Source: Plumapathes pennacea
Taxonomy: Eukaryota; Cnidaria; Anthozoa; Antipatharia; Myriopathidae
Assembly: GCA_964036295.1 (NCBI GenBank)
Contig: OZ038473.1
Location: 1,371,501 to 1,435,500 of the forward strand
Direction of reading: 5' to 3'
Length of the DNA stretch: 64,000 nucleotides
Translations under genes and position numbers: made by a program
Shown: positions 20,090 through 23,000 of the stretch, piece by piece
How positions within the stretch are numbered: position 1 is the stretch's first letter
Layout of the letters: every line of letters starts with the position of its first letter
The notes under the pieces: model-generated
The model's database searches: none
What the model was told of the DNA's origin: nothing
The model's input: the letters and a program-made list of their open reading frames with translations, nothing else

Positions 20090-23000
20090 TTAGGGAGACC
20101 TGTCAACATCTTCAGATGGCATGTTAGTCATTAGTTCCAACAGAGACCCAACAGCACCAAAGTAACCCTGCAGCAAAGAGAAGGACATACATTAAAGAAG
20201 TAACAAAATACAGGTCGACTAATACTCCGACTACAGCACACAACAACGAACTACTCCTGTACGACTGACTACTACAGAAAACGACAACAACGACCACGAC
20301 AACTGAAGCAAACTTTCACCCAGGTGTAGTTGAAACCAGCGCTCGACATTAACGGTTGCCCGCTTGCCCGGGGCAACCAAAACTTTTGGTCGGGCAGGTA
20401 AATTCTGAGCCGGGCAACTAGAAATTATGAAAGTTTCTACTGCTTGAAGTCAATCTACAGTCTGAATGGCAACTGACCTAAAACCTTAATGTCGAGCACT
20501 GTGAAACGTCAGTTATCAATAACAGGGTTTGCACTCTTTTGGGCTTTTGAAATTCCATGACTTTCCTTGACTTTTTCCGTGACCTTTTAAAGTTTTCCAT
20601 GACCTGAAGTTGATCAGTTGTTTTCGAAAATTAACAAAAACTGTCCGTTTCCCGACTCATTTTCGCTTTTTTTTCATTCACAAGGAATTTATTTCGTACA
20701 ATGAACGTCATTTTCTATGACTTTCCATGACCCGCACTTAAATGCCATAACTTAGTTCCAGGCCTGGAAAATGAAATTCGGAAATTCCACGACTTTCCAG
20801 GTTTTCCATGACCCGTACGAACCCTTAATAACAGTCTTTCTGAAGACTATTCTCACCCGGACAAACACACTAGATAAACAATCAAAATACCATTGTACGT
20901 CTATAGATGAACAGCTGACACCACTACTGCGTCTGCTACTACTGCTGTACCTCGTGCTTCAAGAACAAAGCCTTCATTGTTCCTTTTGACCAATAGTCCA
21001 TCGCGTAAGCCAACAGTTTCATGGAAATCACATTTCCACGGAGGAAGTTCCCCACGAATACAACACGTTCAATATTCTGTTGGCAGAAAGAAAAATAGAC
21101 GCTCGTGATAAATGTGGGAAATGATAAAAACAGGTGAAGATACTTCACTTGTTTTGTGGAGGATTCTTGGTAGGCACATACTGTAATCAAGGCAAATTTT
21201 CTCCTTTTATTGTGCGGTAAAAGAACCTGACACTTTACCCATTTCCTCAAACAAGCGCCCGGGGAGCTTATTACAAAAGGTGGTTTTAGGAGAGGCGCTT
21301 AGACGAAGGGACAGGCTTCATCGAACATCGAGGAGGGGGCGCTCATTCGAGGAAATACGGCAACAACAAGCGACAAAGATATATTTACCAAGAAAAACTT
21401 CACGGAAAAAGCAAACGCATAAGGATCATTCGCACCCACACACGCACAAACACGCGCGCGCACGCAGGTAGACGCACACGCTTCACGCACCTGATTGACA
21501 GCACACATTCTCGCTATGGAACCAATGTTGTTCGTTATGGTGACTAGCGTTGACTTGGCGATGTCCGCATGACTCACAGCTGCTCTCTTATCTTCATAAC
21601 ACATCTTTCCAAAGCTGTGCAGATAGGAAAAACACCTATCATTAATATTACTATCATTACTATTACAAAATGATGATGATGGTAATAATGATAATGACGA
21701 AGATGATGCTGAAGTTGATGACGATGATGATGACGATGATGATGACGATGATGATGATGATGATGACGATGATGGTGGTGGTGATGATGATGGTGATGAT
21801 GATGATGATGACGATGATGATGACGATGATGATGATGATGATGACGATGATGGTGGTGGTGATGATGGTGATGATGATGATGATGATGATGATGACGATG
21901 TTGATGACGCTGATGACGTTAATGCTAGTACTAGCGCGACAACGATGCAGACAGTTATAATAAAATCTACAAAATAACTAAACCTAGGTTTCCTCGCTGT
22001 GCACGGGCGCCTGACCTGCTAGCGACTGTATCTCCTGGAAGTCCGAACTTGCTGTAGTCGCCGCCATAAATATCTCTAACGAGTTTATCCACTTTCGTGC
22101 TGTCTCCCTGTGCAGCCTGGGCCAGAGCTTGCTCAAAGGTCGTGCAACCCGTCAACAAACAACACAGACCAAGGAATGTACCACCTCCCAGGCTAATGAA
22201 ACAAATGACAACAAGAAATATGAGTCATACAGATCCAGGAATGAACCGCCTGCCAGGTTAATGAAACGAACGAGAAGAAGAAATATGAGTCATACAGATC
22301 CAGGAATGAACCGCCTGCCAGGTTAATGAAACGAACGAGAAGAAGAAATATGAGTCATACAGATCCAGGAATGAACCGCCTGCCAGGTTAATGAAACGAA
22401 CGAGAAGAAGAAATATGAGTCATACAGATCCAGGAATGAACCGCCTGCCAGGTTAATGAAACGAACGAGAAGAAGAAATATGAGTCATACAGATCCAGGA
22501 ATGAACCGCCTGCCAGGTTAATGAAACGAACGAGAAGAAGAAATATGAGTCATACAGATCCAGGAATGAACCGCCTGCCAGGTTAATGAAACGAACGAGA
22601 AGAAGAAATATGAGTCATACAGATCCAGGAATGAACCGCCTGCCAGGTTAATGAAACGAACGAGAAGAAGAAATATGAGTCATACAGATCCAGGAATGAA
22701 CCGCCTGCCAGGTTAATGAAACGAACGAGAAGAAGAAATATGAGTCATACAGATCCAGGAATGAACCACCTCCCAAGTTAATGAAACGAACGAGAAGAAG
22801 AAATATGAGTCATATAGACCCAGGAATGAACCGTCCCCCAGGCTAATAACAGGACAAAAATCATGATTAGTGCACACAAGATGTCTGCTGATAGTTAATT
22901 ATTAGCAACAGTCCATTCACTAACATCCGGGACTTAGCTGAATCTCACCTGGTCCCACTGACTCTACTGAACTTGTCAGCGGACTCCACCGCCAGTACAC

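What the first reader, a model, noticed from the sequence alone, without database searches (positions are those of the whole stretch)
22016..22850. PANK intron array made of decoy copies of its own exon 4 acceptor
Each 65-bp unit carries, on the minus strand, a degenerate start of exon 4 (the LGGGTFL glycine loop) preceded by what was the acceptor. The homogenised inner units all read TTAA where the true acceptor reads TTAG, while the outermost unit still reads TTAG. The AG may have been lost before amplification spread, silencing the decoys, possibly under selection against mis-splicing. The outer TTAG unit is a potential competing acceptor.
Basis: seen in the sequence. Interest (0 to 1): 0.75.

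Follow-up and report, generated by a model that had tools for sequence, protein, structure and literature searches.

The report
Tandem copies of a splice acceptor
In a coral-like animal's pantothenate kinase gene, the start of one exon and its splice site were copied about ten times in the preceding intron; this resembles a repeat type described in lancelets, and nothing here shows that the copies were switched off on purpose.

Summary
A 65-bp array (22164-22847) fills 650 of the 756 nt of a PANK intron. Nine of its ten upstream units copy the last 37 intron and first 28 coding bases of the next exon (55-56/65 identical; 0 of 5000 shuffles as good for an inner unit); the outermost is shown to copy only the exon part. 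Nine units read TTAA; the outermost and the true acceptor read TTAG. The G-to-A change looks like one event multiplied by amplification. The eight homogenised units also gained a CAG|G 8 nt downstream that scores no lower than the true acceptor under a recalled generic matrix, so they are not shown to be silent. By structure this is a 'mirage', an exon-intron-boundary minisatellite described in lancelets (PMC3087553), here in a cnidarian. Best explanation: a tandem-duplication by-product that leaves with the intron; the decoy products followed all read into an early stop, so mis-splicing would be cleared by nonsense-mediated decay (inferred). Splicing was not tested. New member of a known kind, moderate interest.

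The parts
22164..22847 (-). 65-bp tandem array; its exon-proximal end is the true acceptor and first 29 nt of the PANK exon
   Evidence: TRF; units in register
22016..22192 (-). PANK exon SLGGGTFLG...
   Evidence: (PF03630)
22193..22948 (-). intron holding the array, 756 nt, of which 650 are decoy units and 106 are pre-array intron
22843..22846 (-). TTAG of the outermost unit, potential competing acceptor
22250..22252 (-). CAG newly formed inside unit 1, 8 nt past the lost TTAG; repeated every 65 bp up to 22705 in units 1-8
22949..23196 (-). upstream PANK exon, donor CAG|gtgaga
16960..17136 (-). second acceptor array, in a prominin gene: two decoys (exon-like starts 17089 and 17016) with AG intact before the true acceptor (exon start 16982)
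   Evidence: PF05478
16773..16982 (-). reading frame of the prominin exon ALMYELPF..., whose 5' edge is the copied one
   Evidence: PF05478, E 4.1e-12

Best explanation
It is an acceptor-side 'mirage': a minisatellite born when a tandem duplication took in the end of the intron and the first 28 or so coding bases of the next exon. Only the copy joined to the whole exon gives a readable message, so it stayed the working acceptor, while the upstream copies became intron, decayed and were later homogenised by unequal exchange or slippage (shown: the copies, their positions, the shared changes; inferred: the exchange). The copies leave with the intron (inferred from the intact frame through the true acceptor; no transcript seen). 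Occasional use of a decoy would give an early stop, expected to be cleared by nonsense-mediated decay (stops shown; decay inferred). The AG-to-AA change is most simply one hitch-hiking substitution, not a demonstrated silencing.
For: Units are copies of the exon edge. Decoys break the loop SLGGGTFLG: units 1-8 read LAGGSFLDL and unit 10 LGDGSFLGL (my reading), while the Thr is kept in 115 of the 115 homologs in which the site could be placed (120 best of 2818 were at hand, 5 lacked the anchor), so the exon is the source. All ten decoys share the change at that Thr codon. Eight inner units are 65/65 identical and the ends differ, the usual array pattern. All ten AG sites other than the true one that score above 2 in this intron (eight inner CAG, the outer TTAG, one site before the array) lead to a premature stop; so do both prominin decoys. 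Arrays hold an exon edge no more often than random placement gives: 2 of 8 arrays in the two-gene tract 8800-24200, 0.82 expected, fraction 0.18 (only 13 edges, read from the sequence, were entered, and missing edges would raise the expected number).
Against: No transcripts are on hand, so use of decoys is untested. The outermost unit's intron part does not detectably resemble the others, which a plain tandem duplication does not predict unless it diverged by indels. One exon-part site (T to C, position 10) is shared by units 1-8 and unit 10 but not unit 9 or the true copy, which needs a parallel change or exchange. The true acceptor is the weakest of the five scored in this gene (3.87 vs 6.52 to 11.71), so competition could be real.
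Confidence: 0.8

Rival explanations
1. One reading: the decoys were silenced by loss of AG, favoured because mis-splicing was harmful.
For: Nine of ten decoys lack the AG, and the loss fits a time before amplification; decoy use would give a stop.
Against: Most simply one substitution event; a CAG arose 8 nt away in eight of the same nine units and scores 4.53 vs 3.87 for the true site under a recalled matrix; the prominin decoys keep AG.
Confidence: 0.1
2. The array works as a regulator: a row of weak acceptors diverts a share of PANK transcripts into unproductive, stop-bearing messages and so tunes enzyme level with copy number.
For: Eight CAG sites and one TAG score near the weak true acceptor, and every one of these products has a stop.
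Against: No transcripts, no conservation data; eight identical units suggest recent spread, and a prominin gene in the same window has a similar array, which fits a general mutational process better.
Confidence: 0.06
3. The inner units are used as alternative micro-exons.
For: AG and GT dinucleotides occur in each inner unit.
Against: No GT site inside units 1-8 passes the 2.5 cut-off of the donor scan (one in unit 9 does, 4.82); the unit length 65 is not a multiple of three; the loop residues are lost.
Confidence: 0.02
4. Assembly artefact (false expansion of a shorter repeat).
For: Eight identical units are the kind of array in which copy number is hard to assemble.
Against: Different units stand at both ends and the copied edge itself would remain; a second, unrelated acceptor array lies about 5 kb away.
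Confidence: 0.02

Closest known systems
Lancelet 'mirages' (Adh3, troponin C, globins BflGb6 and BflGb9, PGBD5), PMC3087553 and PMC3902484 (passages seen)
   Same: Minisatellite-like tandem duplications across an intron-exon boundary, acceptor side included (BflGb6: 3' end of the intron plus 5' part of exon 2); many but not all units keep splice signals; inner units homogenised, boundary units excluded. The 65-bp unit lies within the 10-72 bp given there for Adh3.
   Different: Cnidarian, not lancelet; ten decoys, against 6 and 3 repeat units of 150-160 bp in the two BflGb6 haplotypes; no RT-PCR here; both cases seen here are acceptor-side, none donor-side. Common descent with the lancelet cases is not claimed.
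Intron gain by tandem duplication of exon sequence, for example in Drosophila (PMC2891723, passages)
   Same: A tandem duplication at a splice-like sequence makes a copy intronic; stop codons and decay are invoked as shelter (also the abstract of PMC2809761).
   Different: Here an existing intron seems lengthened and its acceptor copied; no gain of an intron is shown.
Variable internal tandem repeats at exon-intron boundaries of human duplicated genes (PMC2812944, passages)
   Same: Minisatellite-scale repeats at exon-intron edges that can change gene structure.
   Different: Those lengthen exons and introns or are proposed to form novel introns, and were found by comparing paralogs with transcripts.

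Membership tests
Mirage (boundary minisatellite) | tandem repeats that span an exon-intron boundary | tested here: met
   inner units are 37 nt intron plus 28 nt exon copies, 0 of 5000 shuffles as good; for the outermost unit only the exon part is shown
Mirage (boundary minisatellite) | inner units homogenised, boundary units left out | tested here: met
   identity to an inner unit: units 1-8 65/65, unit 9 62/65, unit 10 39/65, true edge 55/65
Mirage (boundary minisatellite) | regular splicing not disturbed | not testable with these tools
   no transcripts; only the intact reading frame through the true acceptor is shown
Mirage (boundary minisatellite) | length instability between haplotypes or individuals | not testable with these tools
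   one assembly only
Intron gain by tandem duplication | a new intron at a new position | not tested
   no gene structure of a relative was available; the 106 nt before the array could be a complete older intron (inference)

The most novel reading that the evidence does not exclude
Acceptor arrays are a recurrent feature of this cnidarian genome and act as copy-number-dependent splice decoys that set the share of stop-bearing, decay-bound transcripts of genes such as PANK.
Probability: 0.05. Interest if true: 0.75.

Novelty: new member of a known kind. Interest (0 to 1): 0.35.

Why it matters
In the papers seen here, arrays called mirages were reported in lancelets. Two in one 64-kb window of an anthozoan suggest a more general result of tandem duplication landing on splice edges. 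They also give natural series of near-identical acceptors (prominin: three sites of about equal score; PANK: AG lost, CAG gained) for asking how the spliceosome picks the last of several similar sites.

Tried and rejected
Rejected: silencing by selection as shown (see rivals). Rejected: the unit as a dispersed repeat; a 201-base stretch of the array found five matches in the 290-Mb assembly, all inside this array (the tool calls its counts lower bounds). Rejected: arrays drawn to exon edges; random placement gives 0.82 arrays with an edge, 2 were seen, fraction 0.18.

Survey with little yield: the 264 kb surveyed (window plus the 20 loci) hold 52 arrays of period 15 or more after dropping those of simple composition; 111 reading frames of 45 aa or more, simple ones dropped, cross an array end; 5 of 111 match Pfam (Prominin 2, Fumble 1, Sec15_C 1, SH3_2 1). 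Two arrays were found to span an exon edge (PANK; prominin 16960-17136). The other Prominin frame (11288-11554) and the SH3_2 frame end at donor-like sites outside their arrays, judged by eye. The Sec15_C frame was not located: it is not among the 20 frames re-scanned one by one. Exons without a Pfam match would be missed, so two is a lower bound.

Papers: PMC3087553, PMC3902484, PMC2812944 and PMC2891723 were seen as passages, PMC2809761 as abstract and outline, the others only as search listings (the third 'amphioxus or lancelet' term was read literally by the tool and was useless). One search joined cnidarians with such arrays (cnidarian, minisatellite, intron, splice; 2 papers, PMC3902484 and PMC6905558, the latter an abalone paper seen as listing only). 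That is one search of one library. The original Adh3 paper on mirages did not show (one search listed 5 of 1,028) and was not read.

Full report
What is there. The minus strand carries a pantothenate kinase gene (PF03630 Fumble). Six exons join into one reading frame...-23645, 23196-22949, 22192-22016, 21614-21491, 21076-20951 and 20167-20090 with a stop. The exon with the start codon was not located. The joined protein is 77% identical to Desmophyllum pertusum PANK and 72% to Nematostella, the best named relatives, and residues 1-352 of 364 align with pantothenate kinase 2 of PDB 5e26. The host is therefore most likely an anthozoan; its 290-Mb assembly of 24 contigs is unnamed.

The array. 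Intron 22948-22193 is 756 nt long; 650 nt of it are ten 65-bp units and 106 nt lie before them. Nine units are 37 nt like the end of the intron and 28 nt like the start of the exon. An inner unit matches the true edge at 55 of 65 positions and none of 5000 shuffles scores as high; the exon part of the outermost unit matches at 22 of 28 (fraction 0.0002). The intron part of the outermost unit is not detectably related to the others.

Order of events. At the conserved threonine codon of the loop GTSLGGGTFLG all ten decoys read TCA instead of ACA; threonine stands there in 115 of the 115 homologs in which the site could be placed, out of the 120 best-scoring that were at hand (5 lacked the anchor). 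So the exon is the source, and the decoys most simply share an ancestor. TTAG to TTAA is in units 1-9, not in unit 10 or the true site. GGGAG to GGCAG is in units 1-8 only. The simplest order is: first copy, change at the threonine codon, split of the outermost unit, loss of AG, split of unit 9, gain of CAG, recent spread of eight identical units. One site goes against a clean order: position 10 of the exon part is C in units 1-8 and unit 10 but T in unit 9 and the true copy.

Are the decoys silent? Differences of the size 3.66 to 4.53 are within the noise of such a matrix, and the tract before the inner CAG is broken by AACCTGG, but the claim that the inner units were made silent is not supported. 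Eleven AG sites score above 2 in this intron, the true acceptor included; each of the other ten leads to a premature stop, the eight inner ones through the same short tail, GTRRFIPGSV*.

About five kilobases away a prominin gene (PF05478, E 4.1e-12) has a 224-nt intron (17206-16983) with two more copies of the acceptor of the exon ALMYELPF.... The longer match is 56 bp at 92.9% identity, E 1.9e-14. Both decoys keep AG and score 7.31 and 7.38, the true site 7.38. Both would read into a stop, after 20 and 7 codons. The upstream exon (...DIIKK|) was read from the sequence and is in the right phase; it was not tested by Pfam. Here decoys of full score have been tolerated with AG intact, which speaks against a general need to silence them.

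How it most likely works. A tandem duplication that takes in an acceptor leaves one copy joined to the whole exon; only that copy gives a readable message and stays in use. The others become intron, drift and spread as a minisatellite. The gene's fully bounded internal exons are short (124-248 nt) against introns of 401 to 783 nt (computed from the coordinates), which favours recognition across the exon and so the exon-proximal acceptor (established knowledge, not tested here). Rare mis-splicing would end in decay (inferred). Arrays of period 15 or more in the two-gene tract hold an exon edge no more often than chance: 2 of 8, 0.82 expected, fraction 0.18, with 13 edges entered.

Known kind. 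[quoted passage not shown] PMC3902484 adds PGBD5 and troponin C. This array matches in structure; it differs in host and in its run of ten short units. It is filed as a new member of that known kind by structure, not by descent.

Limits. No RNA, no second individual, no close relative's locus, a recalled splice matrix, and a survey of only 264 kb.

Noticed in passing
window 16960-17136 (minus): Second acceptor-copy array, in a prominin gene, with AG intact in both decoys.
   Followed up: yes
window 24206-24872 and 21670-21916: Long GAT/ATG trinucleotide arrays beside and inside the PANK gene; the second lies in the intron between exons 22192-22016 and 21614-21491.
   Followed up: no
G000:C5:6698934-6701787: Five further Fumble-domain matches on contig 5, as of a second such gene; three of the five are listed with a 958-aa open frame.
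   Followed up: no
window 30516-31535 and G000:C12:1562821-1583986: Arrays of about 170 bp (6 copies) and 172 bp (123 copies); whether they are one satellite family was not tested.
   Followed up: no
window 34494-36997 and L029 5533-8032: The same series of short arrays (periods 32, 39, 31, 32) appears twice, about 185 kb apart, as if part of one dispersed element.
   Followed up: no
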